In this document: positions 1 to 12,843 of the stretch, piece after piece
Layout of the letters: each line of letters begins with the position of its first letter
Position numbering within the stretch: position 1 is the stretch's first letter
DNA from: Sedimenticola sp.
GTDB taxonomy: Bacteria > Pseudomonadota > Gammaproteobacteria > Chromatiales > Chromatiaceae
Length of the DNA: 34,365 nucleotides
NCBI GenBank assembly: GCA_026994195.1
Contig: JALWRH010000122.1
Span: 1-34,365, forward strand
Reading direction: 5' to 3'
Position numbers and translations under genes: made by a program
Notes under the pieces: generated by a model
Database searches by the model: none
The model's input: the letters and a program-made list of their open reading frames with translations, nothing else
What the model was told of the DNA's origin: nothing

Positions 1-341
1 TCTTTCAGCAATTTCCCCTGGGTGGTCAGTACCAGGATGCGGTGCGCAGAAGGATCGGCGACATAGAGCAACCCCTTGTCGTAGGCGATATCCGTGGCCG
101 GCATTTCCCCGGCAGGGAGCATCACGCCATGGACCAGTTTTCCCGCGTTATCGAAAACCTGTATGCGCCTTTGCAGTCCGTCCAGCACGAAGGCCCGCCC
201 ATCTTCCGCCACGGCAACGGCGGAAGGCTGCTGCAAGCCTTCTTCCAGGATCATGACGGACTCGGCCGTCATGGCGGCATGGGACGGAGCGGCGGCCCGC
301 AACGTCAACAGCACAAACAACAATAGACGGCACGCACTCAT
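1..341 (-). CDS. NHL-repeat (beta-propeller) secreted protein, 3' part missing
   Basis: Reading the minus strand from the ATG at 341 gives an open frame of 113 codons that leaves the window at base 1 without a stop. The N-terminus (MSACRLLLFVLLTL...) is a Sec signal peptide ending near the AHAA-like stretch at residues 20-24. Then follows a propeller-blade pattern: 'QQPSAVAVAEDGRAFVLD', 'RRIQVFDNAGKLV', 'ATDIAYDKGLLYVADPSAHR', 'ILVLTTQGKLLK'. That alternation (position in the path, 'V.D....RI.VFD..G') is typical of NHL repeats. The ATG overlaps the stop of the upstream trihaem gene (bases 338-341), so translation is probably coupled. NHL proteins are often found beside multihaem cytochrome genes; here it may scaffold or bind a partner in the periplasm or outside the cell, but this is inference. 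It is the last visible gene of the operon. Confidence 0.8.
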   Translation of the reverse strand, partial: MSACRLLLFVLLTLRAAAPSHAAMTAESVMILEEGLQQPSAVAVAEDGRAFVLDGLQRRIQVFDNAGKLVHGVMLPAGEMPATDIAYDKGLLYVADPSAHRILVLTTQGKLLK

Positions 342-1048
342 TCAAGCAGATCTCTCAGCTCTATGCGGATCACGGGATCCTGCGCCGTTTTGGGCTCCGT
401 GCGTTGCAGGAAGCGGGCAATGGGGTTTTCCTGCAGTTCCCGTATCCGTCCAGCCTCATATCCCAGCCTGCGCCAGTCCAGCATCCCTTTCCTGTCATCA
501 TGGCAGGCCGTGCAGTCCGGGCCTTTTTCTTCCAGGGGCTTGTGCAGACGGGCCTTGATTTCCACCCTCTCTTCCTTGTCTGCCTTTTCCCAGTCCTGGG
601 CCAGGCGGCGCGCCCAGGGTTCCTCCGCCATGGTCATCACCGGCTTTCCATTCACCAGGGGTGCAATGAACTCCTCTGCCATCCCCGGTACCCGCTCATA
701 ATCCAGGGAGATGCCCTCTGGCCGCCAGTGGCAGGTTTCACAGGCAATCTGCTGGCCATGCATGTTCAGAAAAGCTCGCTTGCGGGCGCTGCGATGGTGG
801 GGCGCATGGCCATGACAATCCCGGCAAAAGCTGGTGACCCTTTCTTCCCGCGCAGCCTGCTGGTGAAAAGGCGGTACGAACAGGGGTTGCGTCAAGGGTT
901 TGGCACGCGGATTCTCCAGCTGTTTACGAGCCTGTTGCAAAGCCTCTGCATCTGGCCTGGACGCATCCACCGCTTCGGTATAGGGATTGGCCGCAGCGGT
1001 TCCTGCGGCAAACCCCATGGCAACGGCAAGAGCCAATGATTTAATCAT
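338..1048 (-). CDS. Periplasmic trihaem c-type cytochrome
   Basis: 236 residues with a signal peptide (residues 1-20, cleavage after AAA) and three CXXCH haem-c motifs at C75 (CRDCH), C103 (CETCH) and C179 (CTACH). Extra His residues lie around the first two motifs (HAPHH at 81-85, H97), which could supply distal ligands for bis-His haems. The region between the second and third haem is highly charged and helical (residues 145-170). The start overlaps the end of the NapH-octahaem gene by four bases (1045-1048). I cannot place it in a named family; by size and location it should be a soluble electron carrier working next to the NapH-octahaem protein. Confidence 0.85.
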   Translation of the reverse strand: MIKSLALAVAMGFAAGTAAANPYTEAVDASRPDAEALQQARKQLENPRAKPLTQPLFVPPFHQQAAREERVTSFCRDCHGHAPHHRSARKRAFLNMHGQQIACETCHWRPEGISLDYERVPGMAEEFIAPLVNGKPVMTMAEEPWARRLAQDWEKADKEERVEIKARLHKPLEEKGPDCTACHDDRKGMLDWRRLGYEAGRIRELQENPIARFLQRTEPKTAQDPVIRIELRDLLE

Positions 1049-3240
1049 TCCCTTTTCCTCCCATTGCCAGGTTCAGGTTTCTTCTTTCTCTTGCGGCTAG
1101 GCATCTCCAGCATGCGCTGGCGGAAAATATCGCCGCCAAGCGCGGCATACACCTTCCCCTTGGTCTGCTTGCCAAACAGACTGCCCAGCACCCACACCAG
1201 CAGCATCAGCCCCGTGAGCAGGGCCAGCACCAGCAAGGCACTGTTCCAGGCGGACTCCCTGTCGAATGCCGTGGACAGCCCAGGTTCTTCCGTTAGCTGC
1301 GTCTCCAACATAATCGGCGCCAGATCCAGGTCATGCATGTCCGTGTGCAGAAAACCTTCATTCATGGCGTTGGCGGCAAACCCATGGCATCCCCGGGCGG
1401 CGCAGGTGTTGCCCAGTTCGTCTTCATGGGTGGAGGCGCCGGGCTTCTCGTCTTCCTGAATACGGTGATGCAAGCCGCCCGGTGCATGACAATCCAGGCA
1501 GGAGGCGCCGGCATCCCGGCCCGCGGCAATGAGCCGTCCATGCAGGGTCAGTTCGTAACTGGCATTGGCCAGCAGGAAACGGACATCGGCCGGCTCCGGG
1601 GCCTTGCGCCCGGCCTCCCGTTTCACCTTCTTCATGCGTTCCCCATCGGCATGGCATTTCGCGCACATGGCGTTGCCCTCGGCCTTGGTCCAGCGCCCGC
1701 CCAGCAGGCGGCGCAGGATGTGGCCGGTAAAGCGTTCCCGCCACACATCATCCTTGTGGCAGTTGCCGCAGGCTTCGTCGCTGTGGGCAAAGAGCTCCCG
1801 AAACCGGGGCATCTGCACTTCGCTGATATAGCCGGTGTTGCTGTGACACAGGCGGCAGGAAGGGCTGGCGTCCTTTTCCGACTCTTCCAGCCGGTTGCCG
1901 CCGGTGAGACCCTTGCTTCGGCCCTTCCCATGAACGGAGTCTTTCATTTCCTCCACAACTTCCTTGTGGGTGTAGGCCGATCCTTCCGACGGCTCCTCGA
2001 TATGACATTCGCTGGCGCAGTCCACGCCCTTGTCCTCTTCATGGGGAAATCGGCGGATGGCGGTGTGGCAGTCACTGCAAGGAACATTGCCGTGAAGGGA
2101 GGCCCCATAGTGCTTCCGGTCTATTGTCAGGTTCCGGCGCAGCCCCCTGTCATCCACGAATTCAAATCCGGGCAGAGCGTGGCAGACTAGGCAGCCATCC
2201 GGGTCATTCTGTTTTTTCGCCGCGCCTGCCGTGCGTGTCCACAGCAGCAGCCCCGCCAGCAGCACCAGAATCAGCAGCAGGACCCGGCGGGTGGTGATGA
2301 ATCCCTTGCGCGGCTTGTGCAGGGCAATCCATTCCGGCAGAGGGTGGAACTCCACGTCCTTCTTCTTGCGCCTGTGCTTGATCTCCGGCGGCACCGTGAG
2401 CCAGTCGATGGCGCCCCAGTCACAGACATCCGCGCACTCATGGCAGGACATGCAGGACAACTGATCCACCACGGCGATCTTATCCACCATAGTGATGGCC
2501 CCGCACATGCACTTCCGGGCGCATTCGTTGCAGCCGGTGCAGCGATTGCGCTCCACGCGGATGCGGCGGGTGAAACGGAAGTGCGAACCCAGGCGGTTCA
2601 CCACGGCATCGATGGCCCCGATGGGGCAGAGAAAGGCGCAATAGGCCCGCCCCTTGTTGGCGAACAGCCCCAGTAGCAGCACCAGCCCCAGGTTTACCAT
2701 GCCCACAGTGGTCACCAGGAAGGCCAGGCCCCGCCAGTCGCCGCTGAAGGCCTGGAAGATGCGCGGCACGGTGATGAAGTTGCACAGGGTGCAGGCGCTC
2801 ACCCCCAGCATGGGCATGAGGAGCACGAAGGTCAGAAAATAGCCGTAACGTATGGGCACCTGTGGCAGCCAGCGGTATTCCAGCTTCCAGCGCTCCCCAG
2901 TGATACGGCTGGCCAGTTCCGGCACCCCGCCCATGGGACAGAGGTAGGCACACCAGATACGCCCGAAGAAGAAGGTGGTGACCAGGATGAGCAGCAGGAA
3001 GCCCGCGCCAATGGCGGCCACGCTGATCTGGTTGAGCAGGTCGTCCCAGCTCATGCCAGGGAAGTAAAGATAGAAACGGCGCATGCACAGGGGGCCGCAC
3101 AAATCCGGGTTGCCGAACAGGGAGGGAATCAGGGTGAAGGGCGCGAGCAACAGCAGGGCCGACAGCACGATCAGCGCATAGCGGTATTTCTGCCCGGCGG
3201 GAATGTTTTTCAGTCTGTCAAACATCTTTCCTTCAATCAT
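1045..3240 (-). CDS. NapH/NosR-like polyferredoxin membrane protein fused to an octahaem c-type domain
   Basis: 731 residues. Part one (1-290) is NapH-like: transmembrane helices near 22-42, 72-95, 133-150 and 172-195, two CXXXCP signatures (C97-C101, 'FFGRIWCAYLCP'; C201-C205, 'GRAYCAFLCP'), further Cys pairs C48/C52 and C150/C153, then two CXXCXXCXXXC 4Fe-4S sites (C234-C244, C263-C273). A helix at 318-338 crosses the membrane. Part two (340-660) carries eight haem motifs: C350, C388, C408 (CX3CH), C462, C491, C526, C581 and C613 (CX4CH). A last helix (about 665-690) and a Lys/Arg-rich tail end the protein. NapH normally passes electrons from quinol or the cytoplasm to a separate periplasmic cytochrome; here the acceptor appears built in. 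Start: ATG 3240 overlaps the upstream stop by one base (TGATG); ATG 3225 is an alternative, preceded by AAGGA but very close. Confidence 0.9.
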   Translation of the reverse strand: MIEGKMFDRLKNIPAGQKYRYALIVLSALLLLAPFTLIPSLFGNPDLCGPLCMRRFYLYFPGMSWDDLLNQISVAAIGAGFLLLILVTTFFFGRIWCAYLCPMGGVPELASRITGERWKLEYRWLPQVPIRYGYFLTFVLLMPMLGVSACTLCNFITVPRIFQAFSGDWRGLAFLVTTVGMVNLGLVLLLGLFANKGRAYCAFLCPIGAIDAVVNRLGSHFRFTRRIRVERNRCTGCNECARKCMCGAITMVDKIAVVDQLSCMSCHECADVCDWGAIDWLTVPPEIKHRRKKKDVEFHPLPEWIALHKPRKGFITTRRVLLLILVLLAGLLLWTRTAGAAKKQNDPDGCLVCHALPGFEFVDDRGLRRNLTIDRKHYGASLHGNVPCSDCHTAIRRFPHEEDKGVDCASECHIEEPSEGSAYTHKEVVEEMKDSVHGKGRSKGLTGGNRLEESEKDASPSCRLCHSNTGYISEVQMPRFRELFAHSDEACGNCHKDDVWRERFTGHILRRLLGGRWTKAEGNAMCAKCHADGERMKKVKREAGRKAPEPADVRFLLANASYELTLHGRLIAAGRDAGASCLDCHAPGGLHHRIQEDEKPGASTHEDELGNTCAARGCHGFAANAMNEGFLHTDMHDLDLAPIMLETQLTEEPGLSTAFDRESAWNSALLVLALLTGLMLLVWVLGSLFGKQTKGKVYAALGGDIFRQRMLEMPSRKRKKKPEPGNGRKRE

Positions 3241-4115
3241 CAGTCATCGAATTGGTGACAGGCCCGGCACAGACTGCCATCCGCGGCAGGAAGGCGCATG
3301 AGCACTTCCCCGACCAGGCGCCTGTAGTCCAGGTTCACGGGTTGACCCAGCGTTCTTTCCAGCTCAACCAGGCGTGCTTCCTTGTCCGCCCTGTAGATGG
3401 GGCTCCAGCGGCTGGGCTGATAGTCCGGGCCGTCCTCCACCGGCCGTTCCGCCACCTGGCGTCCCGCCGGATGCCCCGGGTCTATCACGCCCTTTTGGTG
3501 CGGGCTGTGACAGGTCACGCAGCTGACCTGCCCCTGTTCCCCCAGGGGCAGGATAATCTGGTGCGTCTTTTCCGCTTCCGCCATGCGTTTACGCATCTCT
3601 TCTTCAGGCTTGCGGCTGTGTTCCACGGCATTCAGATGCGGCGTGTTCAAGTGACAGCCCAGGCAGATACGCTCCACCGGCAGACGCAGTTTCAGGTCCC
3701 CGCGTTTCGGGGGATGCTTCCGGTCCGGCACCTCGCGGTGGCAATACTTGCAGTTCTCCTCCCCCGGCTTTCCCTGCTCATCCAGCTGAACGTGGATGTT
3801 CAGCCGCTGATAGGGCTGCTCGTCATGGCACTGGAAGCAGAAATCATCCAGCTTCTTCCAGGGACCGCCGCGCAAAAAGTCATCCGCATGACGCCGGCGG
3901 ATCTCCTCGATGTCCTCGCGCTTGCGCTTTTCCAGATTCTCGACGCCATGACAAGTGGAACAGGCTAGCTGTCCCTGGTCATCCGCTTTCATGCCTTCAG
4001 AAAGTTTCATGGTTTCCGGCACGCCCACCCCCACAGGATGGTGACGCGAGGACAGCTCCAGGGCGCCGGCGGAGGGCAGCATGGCCATGAGCATGAGCAA
4101 CAGCAGGGTACGCAT
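3240..4115 (-). CDS. Periplasmic hexahaem c-type cytochrome
   Basis: 291 residues from ATG 4115, chosen because it opens a clear signal peptide (MRTLLLLMLMAMLPSAGA) and sits one base after the stop of the upstream cytochrome gene. The open frame reaches further upstream, but that part lies over the neighbouring gene and has no signal sequence. Six CXXCH motifs are present: CSTCH, CFQCH, CKYCH, CLGCH, CVTCH and CRACH. The spacing and the 'SRHHPVGV' segment after the signal peptide recall cytochrome c7/c3-like and doubled-CXXCH (paired haem) proteins. Many His residues are available as second axial ligands. It should carry electrons in the periplasm between the membrane NapH-octahaem protein encoded just downstream and the other cytochromes of the operon; partner and potential are unknown. 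Confidence 0.88.
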   Translation of the reverse strand: MRTLLLLMLMAMLPSAGALELSSRHHPVGVGVPETMKLSEGMKADDQGQLACSTCHGVENLEKRKREDIEEIRRRHADDFLRGGPWKKLDDFCFQCHDEQPYQRLNIHVQLDEQGKPGEENCKYCHREVPDRKHPPKRGDLKLRLPVERICLGCHLNTPHLNAVEHSRKPEEEMRKRMAEAEKTHQIILPLGEQGQVSCVTCHSPHQKGVIDPGHPAGRQVAERPVEDGPDYQPSRWSPIYRADKEARLVELERTLGQPVNLDYRRLVGEVLMRLPAADGSLCRACHQFDD

Positions 4116-4116
4116 A

Positions 4117-5214
4117 TCAGAGCCCGGCCTGCCCCGCCTGCCCATGAGCATGACAATCGCGGCAGTCGCCGGAGGCCTGGTGCAGACCGGGCAGGCCGTT
4201 GCCCGTGTCCGTTTCCGAATCCTGCCCTTCCCTGTCCATTCGATGACAGAGCACGCAGAGCTGGGCGTACTGTCCCTCCTCCCCTGTCCACACAGGCACG
4301 GCATCCAGCCCCAGGGCGGGGTCCAGCCGCGACGCCCCCTTGGCGGCCAGGTCGATGAGCAGGCCGGTATTTTCCGTGCCGTGCATGGCATGGCAGTCTG
4401 TGCAGTCCACGCGGGAGGCATAGGCATAGCCTTCCCTCAGCCCCCGGTAGGTGCCGTTGCCGCCCGCGCGATGGCCGTGGCAGTCGATAAAGCGGTAATT
4501 GTCTTCCATGGCCACCAGGGGATCACGCCAGTGCCTGTCATCCATCTCGAAGCCGGGAATCTGGTGATCGCGGTTGTGGCAGCGCAGGCAAAAATCCGCG
4601 TTGGAGAAATAGGGCGCGGGCCGCTGGTGGGCATCGGGAAACAGGGTGAGGTCCTGCTGCATCTCGAAACGGCCGTCCATGTCAGAGTCCAGGTGGCAGG
4701 TCACGCATTCCCCGTCCAGGTCCATGCCCGCGAAATCATGGCGAAAACTGCCGTCACGGTGCGGCCTGGCCGGAAGATCCTTTGGGTTGTGACAGATGAC
4801 GCAGGGCCGTTTCCTTCCCGTGCCATTGCTGCCATGACAGCCCATGCAGCTGGCGTATTCCTTGTCACGCACCATGCCGCGGATGCCCGCGGCGGACTTT
4901 CCTTGATGGATGCGCCGCAAGGGATGGCAGGCCGCGCACTCGGCCTGCTTCCATGCAGAGCCGTCATCACCGTGTCGGGGCGTGAGCAACAGGCTTCCGC
5001 CAGGGGCGCTGCCCGCAAGAAACAGCAGGATGAGCAACAGCAGCAGCTCAGTTCGGCGGCTCCCCGAGCGTCTGCGAAAGGGGGCGGAGTCAAATGGCAG
5101 CACCCTTGGACAGATTCCATGATTCGGGAATTGTCCGCTTCCTTTCTCTGCAAAGGCTCGGAGATGATTTGACTCCGCCCCTTGGAGTGCAAGGTACTGA
5201 ATGGTCGGCTTCAT
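4117..5214 (-). CDS. Octahaem c-type cytochrome with a ninth, degenerate haem site
   Basis: 365 residues from ATG 5214, which overlaps the upstream stop (bases 5211-5214). Eight CXXCH motifs: CAACH (C93), CMGCH, CVICH, CVTCH (C170), CLRCH, CTDCH (C271), CVLCH and CRDCH. A ninth site reads FIDCH (F242-H246), with the first Cys replaced by Phe (codon TTT; Cys TGT is one base away). The membrane/signal stretch (residues 54-70, ELLLLLILLFLAGSA) does not begin at the N-terminus: 50 residues precede it, and they are largely encoded by a 101-bp inverted-repeat element at 5081-5181. The original start was probably close to the signal stretch and the element seems to have lengthened the protein in frame, or export now depends on an unrecognised start. 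The rest resembles periplasmic multihaem cytochromes with bis-His haems. Confidence 0.82.
   Translation of the reverse strand: MKPTIQYLALQGAESNHLRAFAEKGSGQFPNHGICPRVLPFDSAPFRRRSGSRRTELLLLLILLFLAGSAPGGSLLLTPRHGDDGSAWKQAECAACHPLRRIHQGKSAAGIRGMVRDKEYASCMGCHGSNGTGRKRPCVICHNPKDLPARPHRDGSFRHDFAGMDLDGECVTCHLDSDMDGRFEMQQDLTLFPDAHQRPAPYFSNADFCLRCHNRDHQIPGFEMDDRHWRDPLVAMEDNYRFIDCHGHRAGGNGTYRGLREGYAYASRVDCTDCHAMHGTENTGLLIDLAAKGASRLDPALGLDAVPVWTGEEGQYAQLCVLCHRMDREGQDSETDTGNGLPGLHQASGDCRDCHAHGQAGQAGL
5081..5181. repeat. Short element with perfect 15-bp terminal inverted repeats (REP/MITE-like)
   Basis: The sequence GGGGCGGAGTCAAAT at 5081-5095 is repeated as its exact reverse complement ATTTGACTCCGCCCC at 5167-5181, 71 bases apart. 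Similar 'GGGG-GGAGTCAAAT' termini are, to my memory, common around REP-associated (IS200-like) tyrosine transposase sequences in gammaproteobacteria, but no transposase is present here. The element lies inside the first 50 codons of the octahaem cytochrome gene (4117-5214) and keeps the frame open. No clear target duplication is visible at its ends. Confidence 0.7.
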
Positions 5215-5810
5215 GGGCCAATCTCCCGGTGACAGTCGAAACAGTAGGACGGGTTGTGACAGCTGCCGCACTGGGCCGGGTCCATGCGCGCTTCCAGACC
5301 GTGGGAAAGACGATAGCCCGGTCCATGCTTGCGGCGCACGGCGGCATCACGGCGAAAGTGACAATCGATACAATCGCTCATGTCCAGGTGGCAGACCTGG
5401 CAGGCCGTTTCGTCCCGGGCCGCGTCCGGCCCGTGCAGGCGCACATAGTCGAAATCGTGATCCCGGGGCCAGATCTTCTTCGGATCGGGATGACAGAGCC
5501 GGCATTGTGCGGGCGCGCTGCGGTCTTCAACGTGACAGGAATGGCAGATGGCCTTCAGGGGTTCGTTGGCCACCAAGGCCACAGCTGCCGCCCGTTCCGG
5601 GTCCGTTTCCTCGATGCCGCTGAACGGATGGCAGGCCAGACAGGTGACGCCGCTGGTCTTCATCACCTTGTCATGGGCCTTGTGGGGAAAGTAAAGCTCC
5701 GGTTTCTGGCGGTGGCGCTTTTCCCACCAGCGTTCCGGTTCCTGCTTTTCCGCGGCACCCGGCTGCGCCCAGCAGCAGGTCAGCAATATCATGAGCAGCA
5801 GCAACCTCAC
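5211..5810 (-). CDS. Periplasmic heptahaem c-type cytochrome
   Basis: 199 residues starting at GTG 5810. This start is chosen because it overlaps the upstream stop (5807-5810) and is followed at once by a signal peptide (MRLLLLMILLTCCWAQPGAA). The longer open frame upstream is an antisense-like reading of the barrel gene's 3' end. Seven CXXCH motifs follow in only about 170 residues: CLACH, CHSCH, CRLCH, CQVCH, CIDCH, CGSCH and CFDCH. One haem per 25 residues is the density of cytochrome c3/c7-type and doubled-CXXCH proteins. 'FPHKAHD' near residue 42 is the usual distal-His segment before the first haem of such proteins. Position directly after the beta-barrel gene suggests it may plug into or feed the barrel, as MtrA-type cytochromes do; it is shorter and has fewer haems than MtrA. 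Confidence 0.87.
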   Translation of the reverse strand: MRLLLLMILLTCCWAQPGAAEKQEPERWWEKRHRQKPELYFPHKAHDKVMKTSGVTCLACHPFSGIEETDPERAAAVALVANEPLKAICHSCHVEDRSAPAQCRLCHPDPKKIWPRDHDFDYVRLHGPDAARDETACQVCHLDMSDCIDCHFRRDAAVRRKHGPGYRLSHGLEARMDPAQCGSCHNPSYCFDCHREIGP

Positions 5811-7093
5811 CGGTAGTCCTCCGCGCCCCTGGCGGGCAGCTGGTAGATCAGCCTCAGGCCAAAACGCAGCTGGTCGTAGTCCTCCAGTCTTCCCCGGGAA
5901 CGGGCCAGCTCCAGCATGCCGCTTAGGTGCAGGTCCCGGGTCCACATCCAGTCAAGGCGCACTTCCCCAGCCATTACCGAGCGGCTGCCGTCCAGGCGGC
6001 TGCGTTCGTCGCGCAGGGCGCCGTTCACCTCCAACAACAGGCGCGAATTCAGGGGACGCTGGTAGCCCAGATACAGCCCCGCCGTGTGTTCATCATCCCC
6101 GCCCAGCCAGTCCGCCCGGCCCTGCAGCAGCTGCCCCTGGTCCAGCTGCCAGTTCAGGGACAGTTCCAGTCCCGCGCCTTCCACGCCCCGCTCCCGGGCA
6201 ATGCCACGCAAGCTGCCGCCCCAGGTGATACGCGCATCCATCTGCTGCCGGTACCCGGCTTCCAGCACCATCTGCCAGCCCCGGGCGTAATAGCGATAGA
6301 ACCTGTCCTGGAAGGTGGCGCTGCGATCCGGCGGACCGTATCGTCTTGCCCGAAGCCACAGCTGGCTTTTCCCATCCAGGCGCGTACTGGCCTGGGCATC
6401 GAAGGTTTCGATGAAACCGCCGCGGGTATCCAGCACCAGGCTGGCGTCCATGGCTACAGGCTGCCAGTCTCCTCCCGGCGACCAGGTGCCGGAAAAGCCG
6501 CCATCCAGCTTCATGGCATCCATCCCGGAAAAGTGATAACGCGCTCCCAGTGACAAGCGGGCCTTGTCAAAGCCGTTCAGGGTCACGATCCGGGACAGGC
6601 TCACACCGGCCAGATACTTGCTGTCCGGCGAGTTCACGTCTTCATCACGATCTGGAATGACATAAGACTCGGTACGCCCGGGCTTGCCGATGAAAGCGTT
6701 CCAGCGTATTCCGGAATCTGCCTGCCACCGCGCATCCACCCCATCCAGGGTATAGAAGCCGGCCGCATCGATACGCTCGAAGCGGCCGGCTCGCACGCTC
6801 AGACTGTTTTCCAGGAAACGCATTTCCACGAACAGGCGATGGAGATTCATCCAGCTTTCTTCGCCGGATGCCCCCCAGTTGCCCAGCAGGCTCCAGCTCA
6901 GGTTCTCATCCCGGCGGCGGTAGTCCAGGGTCAGCCACTGCTCCAGGTAGTTGCCCGGATCGAAATGACTGTCCGACTGGAAACGGGTTTCCAGGCTGCC
7001 GCTGAGGGCCGCCCGGGCCGGCAGCGCCAATGCCTCCAGGAAGACAAACAGCAGGGCCCGCAGGCCAGGCAGAAGGCGCGGAAAACAGGACAT
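5807..7093 (-). CDS. Outer-membrane beta-barrel protein, candidate porin partner of the cytochromes
   Basis: 428 residues from ATG 7093, which opens a signal peptide (MSCFPRLLPGLRALLFVFLEALALPARA). The mature part is made of alternating amphipathic strands rich in Trp, Tyr and Arg: 'GSLETRFQSD', 'YLEQWLTLDYRR', 'NLSWSLLGNWG', 'SVRAGRFERID', down to a last strand 'LRFGLRLIYQLPARG'. No Cys pairs and no haem motif in the mature part. Size and strand pattern fit a 16-20-stranded barrel. It begins 8 bases after the small Cys-rich gene and overlaps the heptahaem gene by 4 bases. MtrB/PioB-type barrels in porin-cytochrome complexes are larger (about 700 residues or more) and often have an N-terminal CXXC; that is missing, so a role as electron-conduit sheath is suggested by context only. 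The frame upstream of 7093 overlaps the small gene and is not used. Confidence 0.8.
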   Translation of the reverse strand: MSCFPRLLPGLRALLFVFLEALALPARAALSGSLETRFQSDSHFDPGNYLEQWLTLDYRRRDENLSWSLLGNWGASGEESWMNLHRLFVEMRFLENSLSVRAGRFERIDAAGFYTLDGVDARWQADSGIRWNAFIGKPGRTESYVIPDRDEDVNSPDSKYLAGVSLSRIVTLNGFDKARLSLGARYHFSGMDAMKLDGGFSGTWSPGGDWQPVAMDASLVLDTRGGFIETFDAQASTRLDGKSQLWLRARRYGPPDRSATFQDRFYRYYARGWQMVLEAGYRQQMDARITWGGSLRGIARERGVEGAGLELSLNWQLDQGQLLQGRADWLGGDDEHTAGLYLGYQRPLNSRLLLEVNGALRDERSRLDGSRSVMAGEVRLDWMWTRDLHLSGMLELARSRGRLEDYDQLRFGLRLIYQLPARGAEDYR

Positions 7094-7101
7094 GAGGCCG
7101 G

Positions 7102-7323
7102 TCAGGCATCCCGTCCCGGCCCTGACGTGCTCTTTCCAGCCCGCCACAACGCCCAACCACCAAGGCCCACCAGTGTCGCAAGGCAACCGCCGCAAGCTGA
7201 ACAATGGCCGCTGCGCGCCACGGAGCAGCCGCTGCCGCCGGCCAGGGCGATCTGGGACAAGGCCATGCCCACGCCCAGGGCTGCCGCCTGCAGGCTCCTG
7301 CGTTTTTCGTTTTTTGCTTTCAT
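7102..7323 (-). CDS. Small Cys-rich exported/membrane protein of the cytochrome operon
   Basis: 73 residues. An N-terminal signal-like stretch (KNEKRRSLQAAALGVGMALS, cleavage near ALA-GG) is followed by a compact Cys cluster: 'GSGCSVARSGHCSACGGC', that is CX7CX2CX2C with one His. A second hydrophobic helix follows (residues 49-62, LATLVGLGGWALW) and a short basic tail. It lies between the octahaem gene and the barrel gene with no room for another start. The CX2CX2C cluster could bind a metal or a cofactor, or take part in thiol chemistry for haem attachment. No known family recognised. An ATG with only a weak upstream GGGA is the start; translation may depend on the preceding hairpin region. 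Confidence 0.65.
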   Translation of the reverse strand: MKAKNEKRRSLQAAALGVGMALSQIALAGGSGCSVARSGHCSACGGCLATLVGLGGWALWRAGKSTSGPGRDA

Positions 7324-7343
7324 GGCGAATCCCAGAAAACGCC

Positions 7344-7362
7344 CCCGCTGTCATGTAGCGGG
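7344..7362 (-). other. Intercistronic hairpin after the octahaem gene
   Basis: A perfect 6-bp stem CCCGCT / AGCGGG with a 7-base loop lies between the stop of the octahaem cytochrome (7378) and the next start (7323). On the minus-strand transcript it is followed, after a few bases, by only four U. It is too weak for a full terminator; it may protect the 3' end of the first cistron or reduce read-through, giving more octahaem cytochrome than downstream products. Inference only. Confidence 0.35.
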
Positions 7363-7377
7363 AGCGGATCTCATGGA

Positions 7378-10158
7378 TCAGTTGCCGCAGCTTTCCGGCA
7401 AGACACAACTGGCCACGATGGCCCCCTTGCGGTCGGCAATGGCGAAATAACCCATGTCCGTGGCACGGACGATGACATAACCGGCCAGGCCGTCATGGGC
7501 AGGCTTCACCGCCAGGATGTCACTGGCGCCCAGGTTGTCCCAGCTGGCGCCGTCCACGGAAGCCAGCAGCTGCAGTTTGCCTGGCGCATTCATACCCCCG
7601 CGGTAGGGCAAAACGACCAGCATGTCCACGTCCAGCAGATTGCTGATCACATCACCTTCGGCGTTGATGACTTCCAAGGCCACCAGGTCTGATGCCAGCC
7701 GGCTGCCTTTGTCCGCGGCACCTTCCGCCGCCTTGGTGACCGCGGCATCCTCCACCAGAGCAGCGCGGAAGCTGGTATAGGGCATGATCATGTCCAGCAC
7801 GAAATCAGATGGCGTGAGGATGCTGACACCCCGGATGGGTGCCACACCATAGTTGGGCCGGAAGATGTAACTGTCTTCGCCACCCAGCTCTTTCATCACC
7901 AGCTTGCGATGCCTTTCATCCCAGATACCGGCAGTATTCATGGCCTTGATGGCGGTCACCCGGCGGGCCTGGCCGCGCTGGGACGGCGTGATCTCGTTGT
8001 TCAAACGGGTCATGGATGGGTTCACCAGGGTGTAGTAGAGGATGTCCTCCACCGTCTCCGTCACCTTGCCTTCCTCGTCCATCTTCATGTAGGGCAGGTC
8101 CAGAACCACCAGGCCGTCTTCCACCATCTTTGGATCAGGCAGGGTGGTGACTTCCTTGACATTGCCGGAGCCGAGGATGCTGTCCGGTGCCACCAGGGAA
8201 CTGATCACCCCGTTCTGCTTGCGCCTGTGGCAGCTCTCGCACTCCAGGGCCTCGGTGGAAGGCCGGGTGTTGTGGGACATGAGGTAGTGATTGATCTCCG
8301 TCCAGACCAGGGCCACATCGGGATTGCTCACACCCTTTTTCGCCAGCAGCTTGTCGTAGACATTTTTCAGGGCGGCAAAACCTTCATAAGTGTCCGGATC
8401 GCTGTAACGCAGGCTGCCATGGGAATAACGGGCCGACACTTCCAGCACCACTTCGCCCGTATCCGGATCCCTGACCTGACCCACTTTACTGCCGTCTTCC
8501 TTCACCACGTATTCAAACACGCTGTTGCGCTCGGTCTTGGTGAGCACGCGGCCGCTGTTCTTGTCCTTCCAGAAATAGCGGGCGCGCGGGTTGTAGGGAC
8601 TCATGCGCAGCTTGCCGTCTTCCTCGCGGCGGTACTGGTAGAGAATCTGCAAGTCGCGTCCCCGATTCTTCTTGTTGGTGATGTGGCAGGTCTGGCAGGA
8701 CACTTCATCCAGGTGGGTCTGGGTGATGCTCTCCAGTTCATCCTTCGCATAGCCGCGCAGGTCACCGCCGGACTTCCACAGGGCCAGGTGGGCGTCCTTC
8801 ATGTTCTTGTGTCCTGAAGGCGATACGGGCGCCGGCCCCGTGTCATGGCAGTAGATGCAGGACTTGGCCTTGGGTTGGTAATCCCTGTGGTCCGCCAGGT
8901 TCATGTCGGAATTGCCTTTGAGGAAGTTGTGGTCCGCGTCCAGATCCACGTTCTTCCAGGGCTCGCGATAGTAGTTGCGCGCGTGACAGGCGTTGCAGGT
9001 GTTGATTTCCCGGGACTCGCCATTGGCCTCGGTGAACACCTTGCCGTAGTGCACATCATCCTTGTAGTCATCAACCAGCATGCCTTCTTCGTCGTAAACG
9101 GCCTCGGCATCTTCACCAAAGCCATAGAATCCCCGGCGGGAATTGCTGGTGCGGTGGCACTGCATGCAGTTGTCATTGGGCGGGAAACCCATCATGGGTA
9201 TGGATACCTTGCCGTTCTCGTCGAAGGCGGCCCGGTTCCAGGTGAGCTTGGGATTACCGTTATTGTCCAGGTCCAGCTCGTAATCCACATCCGTGCCACG
9301 ATGACCTTCTTCCACAGTAATGTTTTTCTTGGCCACCGTGACCAGGTTCACGTCCTTGTTCACGCCATCGGGATGCCTGATGTTCAGGTATTCCATCATC
9401 GCCGTGGCGTTGTAGCGGAAGAAACCATTGTCGATGAATTTGTAACGGCGCAGGGTTCGCCACAGGTCGTAGCCGTCCGGGCCATCCTCCACGTTCAGGC
9501 GCTCGTCGAATACCTGCAGCCGCCCCTGATCGATATGGCACATGAGGCAGTCGTTCTCCACCACGCCGCTTTTCTTCCAGTCCCATTGGGACACCACGCT
9601 GGCATCAGCCGGCTGGTTGTTGGAATCCGTGCCACGGTTGTAATAATCACCATCGAACGGCTTGACAGTATCCGGATCGACTTCATCATAACGGCGGCCC
9701 TGCCGGTCCTTTTCCATCCAGCCGCCGCCGCTGTGACATCCCTCGCAGCGCTGTATCCATCCCGCCGCGCCCTTGTCCGCAAAATCATCCGCCGAAGCAT
9801 TGTCCTTTTTCGCCAGCTGGTCCGGGTTGTTGCTGCCCATGCAGCTGTAGCCGCCAAAATAACCGGGGCCGACGAGCTGTGGCAGGCCGATTCTCTTGCC
9901 GAAATCGTCATCTGTTTCATCCCTGCCCTGCTCGATGTGGAAGGAATGAGTGATGGACTCGTAGTCGTGACACTGACCGCAAGTAGTGCGGGGGCTGTAG
10001 GGCTTCCCGCTCTTGAGTACATTGGCGCCTGATTCATCCAGCAGCGGAATGGCCGGATGCAGTTTTTCTTCGTCCACCGGTTGCGCGCCAGCAACTGAAG
10101 CTGCAACCACAGTCGTTGCCAGCAGTGAACCCACGGTTACCCGCCAAAACTTATTCAT
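7378..10158 (-). CDS. Large secreted octahaem c-type cytochrome, first gene of the operon
   Basis: 926 residues with a signal peptide (MNKFWRVTVGSLLATTVVAASVAGA). Eight CXXCH motifs: C60 (CGQCH), C138 (CEGCH), C204 (CLMCH), C331 (CMQCH), C388 (CNACH), C434 (CIYCH), C488 (CQTCH) and C640 (CESCH). Haems are far apart and separated by large acidic, non-haem segments. After C640, about 280 residues have no haem and end in a beta-rich domain (residues 820-920) finishing with Cys at 917 and 923, perhaps a disulfide. This layout suits a catalytic or cell-surface cytochrome more than a simple carrier. It is much longer than hydroxylamine oxidoreductase-like or octahaem tetrathionate reductase proteins, and I see no diagnostic active-site motif, so the substrate is open. 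A good ribosome site (AGGGGG, 8 bases before ATG 10158) and a sigma-54 promoter precede it. Confidence 0.88.
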   Translation of the reverse strand: MNKFWRVTVGSLLATTVVAASVAGAQPVDEEKLHPAIPLLDESGANVLKSGKPYSPRTTCGQCHDYESITHSFHIEQGRDETDDDFGKRIGLPQLVGPGYFGGYSCMGSNNPDQLAKKDNASADDFADKGAAGWIQRCEGCHSGGGWMEKDRQGRRYDEVDPDTVKPFDGDYYNRGTDSNNQPADASVVSQWDWKKSGVVENDCLMCHIDQGRLQVFDERLNVEDGPDGYDLWRTLRRYKFIDNGFFRYNATAMMEYLNIRHPDGVNKDVNLVTVAKKNITVEEGHRGTDVDYELDLDNNGNPKLTWNRAAFDENGKVSIPMMGFPPNDNCMQCHRTSNSRRGFYGFGEDAEAVYDEEGMLVDDYKDDVHYGKVFTEANGESREINTCNACHARNYYREPWKNVDLDADHNFLKGNSDMNLADHRDYQPKAKSCIYCHDTGPAPVSPSGHKNMKDAHLALWKSGGDLRGYAKDELESITQTHLDEVSCQTCHITNKKNRGRDLQILYQYRREEDGKLRMSPYNPRARYFWKDKNSGRVLTKTERNSVFEYVVKEDGSKVGQVRDPDTGEVVLEVSARYSHGSLRYSDPDTYEGFAALKNVYDKLLAKKGVSNPDVALVWTEINHYLMSHNTRPSTEALECESCHRRKQNGVISSLVAPDSILGSGNVKEVTTLPDPKMVEDGLVVLDLPYMKMDEEGKVTETVEDILYYTLVNPSMTRLNNEITPSQRGQARRVTAIKAMNTAGIWDERHRKLVMKELGGEDSYIFRPNYGVAPIRGVSILTPSDFVLDMIMPYTSFRAALVEDAAVTKAAEGAADKGSRLASDLVALEVINAEGDVISNLLDVDMLVVLPYRGGMNAPGKLQLLASVDGASWDNLGASDILAVKPAHDGLAGYVIVRATDMGYFAIADRKGAIVASCVLPESCGN

Positions 10159-10445: not shown

Positions 10446-10500
10446 TTTCAGTCTGGTTTCAGTTTCGGTTAAGGATGGTTTCATGTTGTTCTTGTAGGCT
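10446..10500 (+). promoter_or_regulatory. Promoter with response-regulator direct repeats, SHP/cytochrome b operon
   Basis: TTTCAG (10446-10451), spacer TCTGG, TTTCAG (10457-10462) repeat with an 11-base period. Continuing in the same register, GTTAAG (10468-10473) and TTTCAT (10479-10484) follow. Ten bases after the last half-site comes a -10-like TAGGCT (10495-10500). The 6-N5-6 layout is that of OmpR-family activators such as PhoP and PmrA. The same motif occurs at 12332, 16473 (minus) and 16537. A strong ribosome site GGAGG then precedes ATG 10541. Confidence 0.7.
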
Positions 10501-10540
10501 TTTGTTCAAGAGCCGATTACTACCAATAACGGAGGCAAGA

Positions 10541-11170
10541 ATGGCTATAGAAATCGAAAATGAGGAAGTCAGAGTCTGGGATCCGTTGATCAGGCTGTTT
10601 CACTGGACCCTGGTGGCGGTTTTTGCCGTGGCCTACCTGAGCGGTGATGAGCTCGACCAGCTGCATGTCTGGGCCGGCTACCTTATCACTGGCCTGCTGG
10701 TGTTCCGGCTGATCTGGGGATTCGTGGGGAGCAAGCATGCCCGGTTCTCGGATTTTCTCTACTCCCCTCGCCAGGTGATCGGCTACACCCGGTCGCTGTT
10801 TGCCCGAACGCCCAGGCGTTACCTGGGGCACAATCCTGCAGGCGGGGTGATGGTGTTCCTTCTGCTGTTCAGCCTTTCCTTCACCGTGGGCAGTGGCCTG
10901 GTGCTGGATTCTGGCGCTGGCGCCTCATCAATGACTGAAATCGGTCAGGTAGTGCTGCGAACAAAGGCCTGGGCGGATGATGACGATGATGATGAACATG
11001 AGGGCAGGGAGAATGAGATGCTGGAGGAAGTGCATGAATTCTTCGCCAATCTGACCCTGCTGCTGGTGTTCCTGCATATTGCCGGTGTAGTGGTCAGCAG
11101 CCGTCTGCACCACGAAAACCTGGTGCGGGCCATGATCACCGGCAGGAAGCCGCGGGAGCCTGAGGGCTGA
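10541..11170 (+). CDS. Cytochrome b561-type membrane protein of an SHP locus
   Basis: 209 residues from ATG 10541, preceded by GGAGG at a spacing of 5; an upstream ATG-like start at 10475 would overlap the promoter. Four hydrophobic helices carry candidate haem b ligands: H21 (LFHW), H42 (QLHVWAG), H165 (EEVHEFF) and H179 (VFLHIAG). The 'LGHNPAGG' loop (96-102) is typical of the cytochrome b561/Ni-Fe hydrogenase cytochrome b family. Between helices 3 and 4 is an acidic loop with six Asp in a row (residues 146-151) that may bind Ca2+ or dock a basic cytochrome. In known SHP loci the cytochrome b passes quinol electrons to the dihaem DHC and on to SHP. Followed after 17 bases by the cytochrome b-DHC fusion. 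Confidence 0.85.
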   Translation: MAIEIENEEVRVWDPLIRLFHWTLVAVFAVAYLSGDELDQLHVWAGYLITGLLVFRLIWGFVGSKHARFSDFLYSPRQVIGYTRSLFARTPRRYLGHNPAGGVMVFLLLFSLSFTVGSGLVLDSGAGASSMTEIGQVVLRTKAWADDDDDDEHEGRENEMLEEVHEFFANLTLLLVFLHIAGVVVSSRLHHENLVRAMITGRKPREPEG

Positions 11171-11187
11171 GTGGGCAGGATGCAGCC

Positions 11188-12330
11188 ATGGTCAGCAGCA
11201 AGCTTCGTGTCTGGGATCTGCCCACCAAGGTATTTCACTGGGGACTGGTATTGAGCTTTGTTGCCGCCTGGCTGTTGCGCGGCGACCGGTATCTGCATCT
11301 CCATGTGCTGGCGGGTTATCTGTTCTTCTTCCTGCTGCTGTTCCGTTTGTACTGGGGGCTGGCGGGTTCTTTCCATGCCAGGTTCAGCAGTTTCATCCGC
11401 CCGCTGCCCGAAGTATGGGAATACCTGAAGAAAGCCACCGGCAGAAAGGCGCCACGCCATCTGGGACACAATCCAGCCGGGGGCTGGGCGGTCCTGCTGT
11501 TGATGTCATTGGGGCTGATGATCTCCATCACCGGTCTGCTTACCCTGGGCGTGGAAGAAGGCCATGGCCCCTTGGCGGGAATCCTTGGACGGGAATGGGC
11601 TGCCCTGTTCCATGCGTCACATCAAGCGCTCGCCTGGGCCATGCTGTCAATGGTTGGCCTACATCTGGTCGCGGTGTTCAGGGAAAGTGTGCTGCACCGG
11701 GAAAACCTGCCCCTGGCCATGCTCACCGGGTACAAGAGAACGGATACCAAGGCAAGAGCAGAGAATGTTCAGCCTCATGCGGCTGTTGCCTTGGCCCTGC
11801 TGGGGGTTATGCTGGGATTCTCCCTGTGGTGGGGAAGAGGGTATCTCCTTCATTCAGGCAATGAGCCATACCTGCCGTTTTCAGGTCCGATGCTCTCCCG
11901 CAATGCGCTCTGGGAGGAAGAATGCGGCGCCTGCCACCTTGCCTACCATCCTTCATTGCTGCCACGCCGGTCTTGGAACAGGCTGCTGACGCAGCAAGAG
12001 AACCATTTTTCCGAGGACCTTTATCTGGACGCGGGCACGATTTCACGGCTGCGGGCCTATGCTGTGACAGGTGAAGCCGGAAACACCGTTACAGAGGCAT
12101 CGTGGAAGATACACAACAGCATCCCTGCGGCGAAGACACCTGTTCGCATCACCGAAACCGGCTACTGGAAAAACAAGCATAAGGATATTCCGGAAAAGCT
12201 GTGGACGCGATCCGACATCGGCGGCCGGCACAACTGTACTGCCTGTCACCTGGACGCCCGGCAGGGATGGTTTGAAGACGGTGCCATGCGCATTCCCTTC
12301 AATGAGAAAAACATGACACGAATAATGTGA
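11188..12330 (+). CDS. Cytochrome b561 fused to a dihaem cytochrome c (DHC) domain
   Basis: 380 residues. Residues 1-185 repeat the b561 layout of the preceding gene: H17 (VFHW), H37/H39 (LHLHVLAG), 'HLGHNPAGG' (91-99), H142/H145 (LFHASHQ) and H159 (GLHLVA). A further helix at 198-217 leads to a periplasmic domain (225-376) with two haem c motifs, CGACH at C246 and CTACH at C350. This domain follows the DHC family pattern closely: 'ECGACHLAYHPSLLPRRSW' matches 'ECGSCHMAYQPGLLPTHSW' of the DHC protein encoded at 12844, and both have 'HNCTACH/SNCDACH' near the end. It is thus a natural fusion of two neighbours that are usually separate. AGGA with spacing 7 precedes ATG 11188. Probable role: quinol-to-cytochrome c electron transfer toward SHP. 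Confidence 0.87.
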   Translation: MVSSKLRVWDLPTKVFHWGLVLSFVAAWLLRGDRYLHLHVLAGYLFFFLLLFRLYWGLAGSFHARFSSFIRPLPEVWEYLKKATGRKAPRHLGHNPAGGWAVLLLMSLGLMISITGLLTLGVEEGHGPLAGILGREWAALFHASHQALAWAMLSMVGLHLVAVFRESVLHRENLPLAMLTGYKRTDTKARAENVQPHAAVALALLGVMLGFSLWWGRGYLLHSGNEPYLPFSGPMLSRNALWEEECGACHLAYHPSLLPRRSWNRLLTQQENHFSEDLYLDAGTISRLRAYAVTGEAGNTVTEASWKIHNSIPAAKTPVRITETGYWKNKHKDIPEKLWTRSDIGGRHNCTACHLDARQGWFEDGAMRIPFNEKNMTRIM

Positions 12331-12331
12331 T

Positions 12332-12364
12332 ATTCAGCGATGTTTCATGTTCATGTCATAACAT
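12332..12364 (+). promoter_or_regulatory. Internal promoter with degenerate response-regulator repeat, before shp
   Basis: ATTCAG (12332-12337), spacer CGATG, TTTCAT (12343-12348), then exactly 10 bases and a -10-like TAACAT (12359-12364). It shares half-site spacing and distance to the -10 with the promoters at 10446, 16473 and 16537, though the spacer fits the consensus less well. It begins right after the stop of the fusion gene. It could raise SHP and DHC expression relative to the cytochrome b genes. Confidence 0.5.
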
Positions 12365-12393
12365 TAAACATACCAACAGATGTGAGGTAGGAA

Positions 12394-12816
12394 ATGGCGA
12401 TTAAAGTAAATAGGAGAATGATGTCTGCGATTTTTCTTGTTGGCATATCGTGTGGGCTTGTTGTAACAGCACAGGTATCTGCCGTTCAGGAACTGCTTGC
12501 GGAATACGGGAGGGAAGGAGCCGGAAAATACAATGCGGTGAATGGTGAGAAGCTCTGGAAGCGCGTTCAGGTGGATGCCAAGACAGGGCAGAAGCGCTCC
12601 TGCGTCACCTGTCATACGAATGATCTCCGCAAGCCAGGAAAACATGCCCGTACGGGAAAGTTGATAAAACCCATGGCACCATCAGTCAATGCGGACCGCC
12701 TGACCGACAAGAAGAAGATCGAAAAGTGGTTTCATAGAAACTGCAAATGGACGTTGGGTAGAATCTGCACCCCGCAGGAAAAGGCCGATATCCTGGCTTA
12801 TCTTGCAAATCAATGA
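12394..12816 (+). CDS. shp: SHP-type oxygen-binding cytochrome c (DUF1924)
   Basis: 140 residues with a signal peptide (1-30, TAQVSA). The mature protein of about 110 residues fits SHP, the sphaeroides haem protein. One haem c motif CVTCH (C70-H74) is followed by 'KLIKPMAPSVNADRLTD' and 'IEKWFHRNC', and C117/C125 flank 'KWTLGRI', matching the disulfide loop known in SHP. N116 is in the place expected for the unusual Asn sixth ligand that leaves on reduction and lets the haem bind O2 and other small molecules. The physiological reaction of SHP is still unclear; oxygen or peroxide chemistry has been proposed. GAGG lies 7 bases before the ATG. Electron donor is probably the DHC encoded next. Confidence 0.88.
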   Translation: MAIKVNRRMMSAIFLVGISCGLVVTAQVSAVQELLAEYGREGAGKYNAVNGEKLWKRVQVDAKTGQKRSCVTCHTNDLRKPGKHARTGKLIKPMAPSVNADRLTDKKKIEKWFHRNCKWTLGRICTPQEKADILAYLANQ

Positions 12817-12843
12817 AGTTATGTTACACCCGGAGGTATTGAA

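What the first reader, a model, noticed from the sequence alone, without database searches (positions are those of the whole stretch)
1..10158. Nine-gene multihaem operon resembling an uncharacterised electron conduit
One continuous minus-strand run encodes about 40 haem-binding motifs in six cytochromes (8, 7, 8, 6, 8 and 3), a polyferredoxin module, an outer-membrane barrel, a Cys-rich mini-protein and an NHL propeller, with 1-4 base overlaps at nearly every junction. Known porin-cytochrome systems (Mtr, Pio, Ext, Omb/Oma/Omc) share the idea but not this gene set: the NapH-octahaem fusion and the 926-residue octahaem protein do not match any component I know. It might carry electrons out of, or into, the cell.
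Basis: partly seen in the sequence, partly recalled or inferred. Interest (0 to 1): 0.82.

Follow-up and report, generated by a model that had tools for sequence, protein, structure and literature searches.

The report
Nine-gene haem wire through envelope
A block of nine neighbouring genes, kept in the same order in many marine gammaproteobacteria and in a tubeworm symbiont, appears to build an electrical wire of more than fifty haems from the inner membrane to the cell surface, so these microbes may exchange electrons with minerals or neighbouring cells.

Summary
Window 3-10158 (minus strand) holds nine genes A-I with 40 haem motifs. The ninth is cut by the contig end; in a near-identical contig (99.8% over 1601 bases) it is an NHL propeller fused to 14 haems, giving seven cytochromes and 54 motifs. 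All nine genes stand in one order in 18 loci of 18 genomes; 11 more loci, cut by contig ends, agree. They span at least ten genera in six families, with a Lamellibrachia symbiont among them. In 210 genomes of the order, mini-protein and barrel occur only where the 926-aa protein does. D, E, F and the core of I have exactly one extra invariant His per haem, as electron-transfer wires do. The barrel models as 22 strands (pLDDT 82). E carries a lipoprotein signal in 10 of 16 sequences. G joins a NapH-like module to eight haems.

Best reading: a self-contained inner-membrane-to-surface porin-cytochrome conduit, like Mtr, Omb/Oma/Omc, Ext, PCC3 or Uet in design but with another gene set. Direction undecided; outward slightly favoured. 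No description of this gene set was found in the open-access library searched. Function rests on anatomy and conservation; nothing was measured.

The parts
7378..10158 (-). Gene A: 926-aa octahaem cytochrome with signal peptide; C-terminal 722-911 models as a ZU5-like beta-sandwich
   Evidence: 8 haem sites and 9 other invariant His in 13 sequences (the first site reads CX4CH in 9 of the 13); partial match to TIGR04315 42 bits vs cut-off 375; fold match Z 9.5 to ankyrin ZU5, though no Foldseek match reached E 0.001; haem part of the model is poor
7102..7323 (-). Gene B: 73-aa mini-protein with four invariant Cys (33, 41, 44, 47) beside a hydrophobic segment; probably membrane-anchored, possible Fe-S or disulphide site (inferred)
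   Evidence: in 210 genomes found only where gene A is
5807..7093 (-). Gene C: outer-membrane beta-barrel with signal peptide, 22 strands in the model
   Evidence: (pLDDT 82.3, pTM 0.70)
5211..5810 (-). Gene D: compact heptahaem cytochrome, candidate wire inside the barrel; GTG start at 5810 overlaps the end of C by 4 bases
   Evidence: 7 haems and exactly 7 further invariant His
4117..5214 (-). Gene E: octahaem cytochrome; lipoprotein signal in 10 of 16 sequences, none of them of the window's genus; start uncertain (5214 or 5103); about 170 bases near the start match no other fetched locus
3240..4115 (-). Gene F: hexahaem cytochrome with signal peptide, probably periplasmic
   Evidence: 6 haems and 6 further invariant His
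1045..3240 (-). Gene G: inner-membrane NapH-like polyferredoxin (16 invariant Cys, four hydrophobic segments) fused to an octahaem domain held by two further hydrophobic segments; two adjacent genes in some MAGs
   Evidence: (TIGR02163 67 bits)
338..1048 (-). Gene H: trihaem cytochrome, N-terminus signal-peptide-like by eye
3..341 (-). Gene I, cut by the contig end: NHL propeller fused to a 12-18-haem cytochrome (14 in the near-identical L026)

Best explanation
The nine genes build one trans-envelope electron conduit. G sits in the inner membrane. Its NapH-like half exchanges electrons with the quinone pool and passes them through Fe-S clusters to its periplasmic octahaem half. F, H and probably A relay electrons through the periplasm. 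D, a dense heptahaem wire, lies in or under the 22-strand barrel C and carries electrons across the outer membrane. E, an octahaem protein that is a lipoprotein in most sequences seen, docks at the barrel. I, a propeller with 12-18 haems, is a terminal arm that binds the partner or surface and can be lengthened by a 69-residue two-haem module. A may instead be the terminal oxidoreductase. Shown: gene set, order, co-occurrence, haem and ligand counts, barrel model, lipoprotein signals. Inferred: locations of the individual proteins, complex formation, electron flow. Direction is not shown; outward from quinol is slightly favoured (about 50% outward, 35% inward, the rest both or neither) because NapH acts as a quinol dehydrogenase in the Nap system (recalled). 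The confidence below is for a conduit in either direction.
For: Order A-I complete in 18 of 29 loci holding any of it; the other 11 are cut by contig ends and consistent. In the same 210 genomes: A in 16 (two of them fragments), B in 13, C in the same 13, E in 14 of which 13 are in the A set; the fourteenth is a 3980-base contig cut inside the cluster. G occurs fused or as two adjacent genes. Invariant non-CXXCH His equal haems in D (7/7), E (8/8), F (6/6) and the haem part of I (12/12; the thirteenth, H144, is in the propeller). Barrel model. Lipobox-like sites in 10 of 16 E sequences. Haem number of I is 12, 14, 16 or 18 in 14 sequences, with a 69-residue two-haem repeat. One genome keeps only scraps of A, H and I between the matching flanks, so the locus was lost together.
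Against: No expression, haem or electrochemical data. No complex was modelled. The A model is poor over the haems (mean pLDDT 51). The E sequences of the window's own genus lack a lipobox, so E could be periplasmic there. A 22-strand barrel is smaller than MtrB (26 strands, recalled). The hosts already have napA (over cut-off in 15 of 15) and mostly ccoN (12 of 15), so a need for an extra acceptor is not evident; 7 of the 15 genus genomes show no match to A, so it is not essential.
Confidence: 0.72

Rival explanations
1. The locus is an inward conduit (a directional variant of the best explanation): electrons from metal sulphides, Fe(II), a cathode or a partner cell enter through I/E, cross C-D and reduce quinone through G, feeding the Nap or cbb3 chain and CO2 fixation.
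For: dsrA over cut-off in 15 of 15 (in 0 of 14 controls), napA in 15 of 15 and ccoN in 12 of 15 genus genomes: probably lithotrophs with ample acceptors. Two loci (L021, L023) are from bins D100SM and D96SM, which I take to be the Dive100 and Dive96 vent samples of PMC9769843 (passages).
Against: NapH is known as a quinol-oxidising partner (recalled); no donor is shown; the 7 genus genomes without a match to A also carry dsrA and napA.
Confidence: 0.3
2. The locus is a respiratory system for one soluble substrate: A is a catalytic octahaem reductase or oxidase (OTR-like), the other cytochromes feed it from quinol through G, and the barrel is a substrate channel.
For: A is the first gene and among the most conserved (48-90% identity); partial match to TIGR04315 at 330-510 and one spare invariant His.
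Against: Match far below the cut-off (42 vs 375 bits); a single substrate would hardly need over 40 further haems, a lipoprotein and an extendable propeller arm; D, E, F and I look all bis-His.
Confidence: 0.15
3. Already described in substance: the locus is a form of PCC3 or Uet under other names.
For: PCC3 was reported in tubeworm endosymbionts (PMC5566968); Uet has a barrel and NHL proteins and occurs in cathode-oxidising Tenderiales (PMC10734462).
Against: PCC3 has four components, median 34- and 21-haem cytochromes and a porin with up to 42 transmembrane regions; Uet has 11-, 4- and three 3-haem cytochromes plus a peptidylprolyl isomerase; neither list fits here.
Confidence: 0.06

Closest known systems
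Uet, undecahaem electron transfer complex (Tenderiales, some Gallionella)
   Same: Barrel, several multihaem cytochromes, trihaem proteins and NHL-repeat proteins; known from a cathode-oxidising group (PMC10734462, passages)
   Different: Has 11-haem UetJ, 4-haem UetA, three 3-haem proteins and a peptidylprolyl isomerase; NHL proteins named apart from the cytochromes; no NapH-octahaem fusion is named in the passages read
PCC3 (Sideroxydans, Leptothrix, tubeworm symbionts)
   Same: Barrel, outer and periplasmic multihaem cytochromes and an inner-membrane protein in one cluster; tubeworm symbionts among its hosts (PMC5566968, passages)
   Different: Four components; 34- and 21-haem cytochromes (medians); porin with up to 42 transmembrane regions; ~300-aa inner-membrane protein of unknown function; here nine genes, at most 18 haems per protein, 22 strands, NapH-type module
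OmbB-OmaB-OmcB and ExtABCD/ExtEFG/ExtHIJKL (Geobacter sulfurreducens)
   Same: Barrel of similar size (18-21 transmembrane domains in Ext), periplasmic cytochrome, lipoprotein cytochromes; clusters without shared homology do this job there (PMC6148476, passages)
   Different: No NapH module, NHL-cytochrome fusion or 926-aa octahaem protein in the passages read; haem counts differ
MtrCAB, MtoAB, PioAB
   Same: Design: quinone-side protein, periplasmic wire, barrel, surface cytochrome; the MtrC/F domain II/IV model (PF22113) is matched just over cut-off in A, E, F and clearly in I
   Different: Barrel does not hit TIGR03509; no decahaem MtrA/DmsE or OmcA/MtrC protein over the family cut-off
DFE_0448-0451 and DFE_0461-0465 (Desulfovibrio ferrophilus)
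   Same: Multihaem genes beside NHL genes (PMC9769857, passages)
   Different: No apparent porin-cytochrome conduit there; NHL genes separate; three deletion strains kept Fe(III) oxide reduction

Membership tests
[quoted passage not shown]
   Window barrel gave no NCBIfam match at E<=0.01; the genus-wide search of TIGR03509 was empty but so were all 14 controls, so that search is inconclusive
Mtr/Mto/Pio porin-cytochrome system | Decahaem periplasmic cytochrome of the DmsE/MtrA family (TIGR03508, cut-off 192.2) | tested here: not met
   Best window protein 24.3 bits; the 16-haem I of L027 reaches 88.6 bits in five stretches; no protein has ten haems
OmcA/MtrC surface cytochromes | TIGR03507 over cut-off 209.3 | tested here: not met
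   Best 24.7 bits for window proteins, 32.8 for full-length I of L028
PCC3 | Two giant cytochromes (medians 34 and 21 haems), large porin, ~300-aa inner-membrane protein | tested here: not met
   Largest cytochrome 12-18 haems, barrel 22 strands, inner-membrane protein is NapH-like, by counts against PMC5566968 passages; direct homology not tested
Uet | Undecahaem UetJ, tetrahaem UetA, three trihaem proteins, PPIase UetB | tested here: not met
   Haem counts 8, 7, 8, 6, 8, 3, 14; no PPIase model among the Pfam matches of the nine proteins; direct homology not tested
Geobacter Omb/Oma/Omc and Ext | Sequence homology to their barrels and cytochromes | not tested
NapH quinol dehydrogenase ferredoxin subunit | TIGR02163 over cut-off 213 | tested here: not met
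   67 bits over residues 52-277: same kind of module, not a NapH
Octahaem tetrathionate reductase family (TIGR04315) | Whole-length match over cut-off 375 | tested here: not met
   A: 41.9 bits, residues 330-510 only
Porin-cytochrome conduit (kind, not family) | Outer-membrane barrel encoded with outer-membrane and periplasmic multihaem cytochromes | tested here: met
   Barrel model, gene order, lipobox in 10 of 16 E sequences; locations are predictions
Porin-cytochrome conduit (kind, not family) | Electrons pass across the outer membrane | not testable with these tools
   Needs reconstitution or electrochemistry

The most novel reading that the evidence does not exclude
A new, self-contained class of trans-envelope wire, with its own quinone module and a surface arm lengthened by adding two-haem modules, is passed among chemosynthetic gammaproteobacteria as one cassette. 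It lets vent sulphur oxidisers and tubeworm symbionts exchange electrons with minerals, other cells or even host tissue.
Probability: 0.4. Interest if true: 0.82.

Novelty: new variant of a known kind. Interest (0 to 1): 0.62.

Why it matters
Few complete conduits from quinone to cell surface are known. A conserved nine-gene set, seen mostly in MAGs of marine gammaproteobacteria, would give a genetic marker and testable parts for electron exchange in chemosynthetic ecosystems. Its presence in a Lamellibrachia symbiont raises a direct question: what does an animal symbiont exchange electrons with? The near relative that has lost the locus is a natural comparison.

Tried and rejected
Artefact or chance: rejected by shuffles and conservation. 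Solved-structure searches by sequence: no relative of A (E<=0.1) or D (E<=0.01); only chance-level hits for C; two weak c-type hits for E; only ferredoxin parts for G; only propellers among the 60 of 79 rows shown for I. B, F and H were not searched in this way. The fold of the haem part of A could not be judged. MtrB does not appear in the 50 listed fold matches of C, which is not evidence of absence.

Phyletic link to other respiration genes in the genus: uninformative, because dsrA and napA are in all 15 genomes. Spread beyond the class: one sample of 398 genomes of the phylum gave only the window's genome and one weak 82-residue match, which lies in a different, b561-fused protein. Other phyla were not searched with A; the genome-contig scan with G covered bacteria and archaea but finds close relatives only.

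They showed that L057 holds two scars, not one, that G423's E hit is the same contig as L017, and that full-length I reaches no family cut-off except the generic doubled-CXXCH domain.
Full report
WHAT IS THERE. The window is one whole contig of a 3.0-Mb genome in 126 contigs. On the minus strand, positions 3-10158 hold nine genes, here A to I. A, D, E, F and H carry 8, 7, 8, 6 and 3 CXXCH motifs. G carries 6 plus one CX3CH and one CX4CH. Together 40; shuffled proteins give a mean of at most 0.07 CXXCH motifs and never more than 2. Gene I is cut by the contig end. L026 (JALVEW010000100.1, titled Sedimenticola sp.) matches window bases 1-1601 at 99.8% and completes it: NHL propeller first, then 14 CXXCH motifs. 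The full set is thus seven cytochromes and 54 motifs.

CONSERVATION OF ORDER. I collected loci with the G protein from genome contigs (15 loci) and with A from whole genomes, and fetched flanks. With profiles of the nine proteins, 34 stretches were scanned. Four duplicate others (L029=L014, L030=L013, L031=L015, L054=L027; taken from contig lengths and equal gene coordinates or 100% identity). One, L057, is a decayed locus. Of the remaining 29, 18 hold all nine genes in the order ABCDEFGHI on one strand, each from a different genome record; some are close kin (L020/L021 97%, L027/L052/L053 95%, L013/L014 92% identical DNA over their longest match). In L020 gene I is cut by the contig end, and in one genome (G192) A is doubled in tandem. 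The other 11 are cut by contig ends and hold consecutive parts; in L024 E lies in two frames. Printed swaps 'ACB' (L028, L048) and 'GACB' (L042) come, in my reading, from an over-long open frame for C that starts upstream of B; the 'G' of L042 is a 63-bit match in a b561-fused cytochrome farther upstream. In several MAGs G is two adjacent genes, NapH-like and octahaem, which supports the functional link. Not counted there: contig-end fragments of A in G014 and G008.

DISTRIBUTION. A was found in 11 of 92 relatives (one match was weak, and one of the 11 had only a fragment), 16 of 210 genomes of the order (two are fragments), 7 of 369 of the class and 2 of 398 of the phylum (one weak, in a different protein). 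Each count includes the window's own genome, and the samples overlap. Matches fall in at least ten genera of six families. The named hosts are titled Sedimenticola, Chromatiales, Gammaproteobacteria and the endosymbiont of Lamellibrachia anaximandri. In the same 210 genomes B occurs in 13 and C in the same 13, all among the 16 with A; the three without are G014 and G010 (A at a contig end) and G476 (decayed). E occurs in 14: 13 of the A set, and G423, whose 3980-base contig is identical to L017, which holds E-F-G cut at both ends. A FastTree of A places a protein of family f68 with genera g21 and g8 of the window's family (support 1.0) and one of f138 with g34 of that family (0.99) (seven fetched rows have no family label). 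This, with the patchy occurrence, suggests transfer between families, though losses are not excluded.

ANATOMY. D, E, F: besides the CXXCH histidines, D has 7 invariant His for 7 haems (the script listed H135 with the proximal ones; it is not in a CXXCH), E 8 for 8 (H265 likewise) and F 6 for 6. The haem part of I has 12 for its 12 core haems; the thirteenth, H144, is in the propeller. This is what all-bis-His electron-transfer cytochromes show. A has 9 for 8 and G 11 for 8, H 4 for 3, so these could keep a spare ligand. C: AlphaFold2 gives 22 strands, mean pLDDT 82, pTM 0.70 (strands counted from its list), matching outer-membrane barrels in general, Z up to 19.6. E: 10 of 16 sequences have a lipobox-like site before the first haem; the four of the window's genus, L015 and L043 do not. 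G: four hydrophobic segments and 16 invariant Cys of the NapH-like part, then a hydrophobic segment, eight haems and another hydrophobic segment, so the haem domain is probably periplasmic and tethered on both sides. I: haem number 12 in 8, 14 in 4, 16 in 1 and 18 in 1 of 14 sequences; haem spacings show a two-haem unit of 69 residues, two in a row in L026 and four in L015. Three full-length I proteins reach no NCBIfam cut-off except the generic doubled-CXXCH domain. B: four invariant Cys; hydrophobic segments on both sides of the Cys are clear in one homologue (L022), only the second in L016, and none passes the threshold in the window's own B. A: the model is unusable over the haems (mean pLDDT 51), but residues about 722-911 are confident and resemble ankyrin ZU5 domains (Z 9.5, rmsd 3.2, 125 residues, 22% identity); Foldseek's best E-value is only 2.6e-3 and no Pfam match supports it.

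HOW IT MOST LIKELY WORKS. Quinone pool to G; G to F, H and perhaps A in the periplasm; to D within barrel C; to E and I at the surface. The membrane part of G, the barrel and the lipoprotein signals are predictions from sequence; the path and the positions of F, H, A and I are inference. Direction: NapH oxidises quinol in the Nap system (recalled), which favours outflow. Against that, genomes of the genus carry dsrA (15 of 15), napA (15 of 15) and ccoN (12 of 15), all over the family cut-off, so they have acceptors and are probably lithotrophs, which makes uptake from sulphides or Fe(II) sensible. I leave it at about 50% outward, 35% inward. The cassette is dispensable: 7 of 15 genus genomes show no match to A, and in G476 (same genus as the Lamellibrachia symbiont genome G477) the flanks of L053 are present at about 90% identity but the locus is reduced to two scars in tandem with a repeated upstream flank: one joins about 64 bases of the start of A to the end of I, the other keeps about 239 bases of A, 87 of H and 101 of the end of I. 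The locus was therefore apparently duplicated and then lost.

COMPARISON WITH KNOWN SYSTEMS. Not Mtr/Mto/Pio: no MtrB-family barrel, no decahaem MtrA over cut-off. Not PCC3 by component counts (PMC5566968, passages). Not Uet by component list (PMC10734462, passages), although Uet shares barrel, NHL and trihaem proteins and is the nearest in idea; the 2017 Tenderia paper (PMC5371394, passages) names an undecahaem cytochrome and three trihaem ones but no NHL, porin or NapH. The Geobacter clusters (PMC6148476, passages) show that unrelated sets can do this job; homology to them was not tested. In D. ferrophilus, NHL genes stand beside multihaem genes but no porin-cytochrome conduit is apparent (PMC9769857, passages). 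Murali et al. (PMC10553843, passages) describe the OetI-type conduit (a periplasmic cytochrome, a porin and an extracellular lipoprotein cytochrome); the words NHL and NapH do not occur in its main text. A 2024 homology-free survey (PMC11475568, passages) reports 440 gene clusters without known markers and lists the Riftia symbiont among its validation genomes; its tables could not be read, so this locus may be listed there without a description. Passages of PMC13322032, PMC11279179, PMC13343851, PMC6295460, PMC13186404, PMC9769843 and PMC12016550 describe no such set; the last mentions a multihaem locus with two NHL proteins in Geoalkalibacter.

VERDICT. A real, conserved, uncharacterised nine-gene unit, most likely a complete porin-cytochrome conduit: a new variant of a known kind. 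Not found described in ten searches of an open-access library; subscription papers are mostly missing from it.

Noticed in passing
window 10475-13401 (+): Divergent from the cluster: a cytochrome b561, a b561 fused to a dihaem cytochrome (DHC), a DUF1924 protein with one haem motif and a second DHC; this is the cyt b/DHC/SHP set by recall. In L060 proteins of like sizes and haem counts stand upstream of A with an HlyD/FtsX/ABC efflux set between them.
   Followed up: partly
window about 5031-5208: About 170 bases inside the start of E have no match in the closest relative (L028) or any other fetched locus; looks like a recent insertion.
   Followed up: partly
L057 10002-10088 and 12714-13131: Two deletion scars of the cluster in tandem in G476, with the upstream flank repeated, followed by a mechanosensitive channel gene absent from that place in L053.
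   Followed up: yes
L043 1585-14585: A single-contig genome (G192) has two tandem A genes and, just upstream, a 9-haem protein and an 8-haem protein with a PKD domain.
   Followed up: partly
L058 9764-13417: A 1217-aa protein joins haem stretches similar to the N-terminal third of A (27%, E 5e-21) to a cytochrome b561 domain: a distant relative of A tied to the membrane.
   Followed up: partly
L042 9216-13233: Near a partial cluster in G123: a nonahaem-b561 fusion and an 8-haem protein of family PF13447.
   Followed up: no
L060 10087-11002 and L059 4608-5531: Contig-end fragments of A 99% identical to the window in G008 and G014; G008 also has an 89% copy with B-E, so these bins may mix strains or hold two copies.
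   Followed up: partly
window 14073-34364: By reading the open frames (recalled names): a two-component pair, an RND efflux set, a TonB receptor, a sortase with a VIT/vWA protein, and a fused transporter-acyltransferase-AMP-ligase gene.
   Followed up: no
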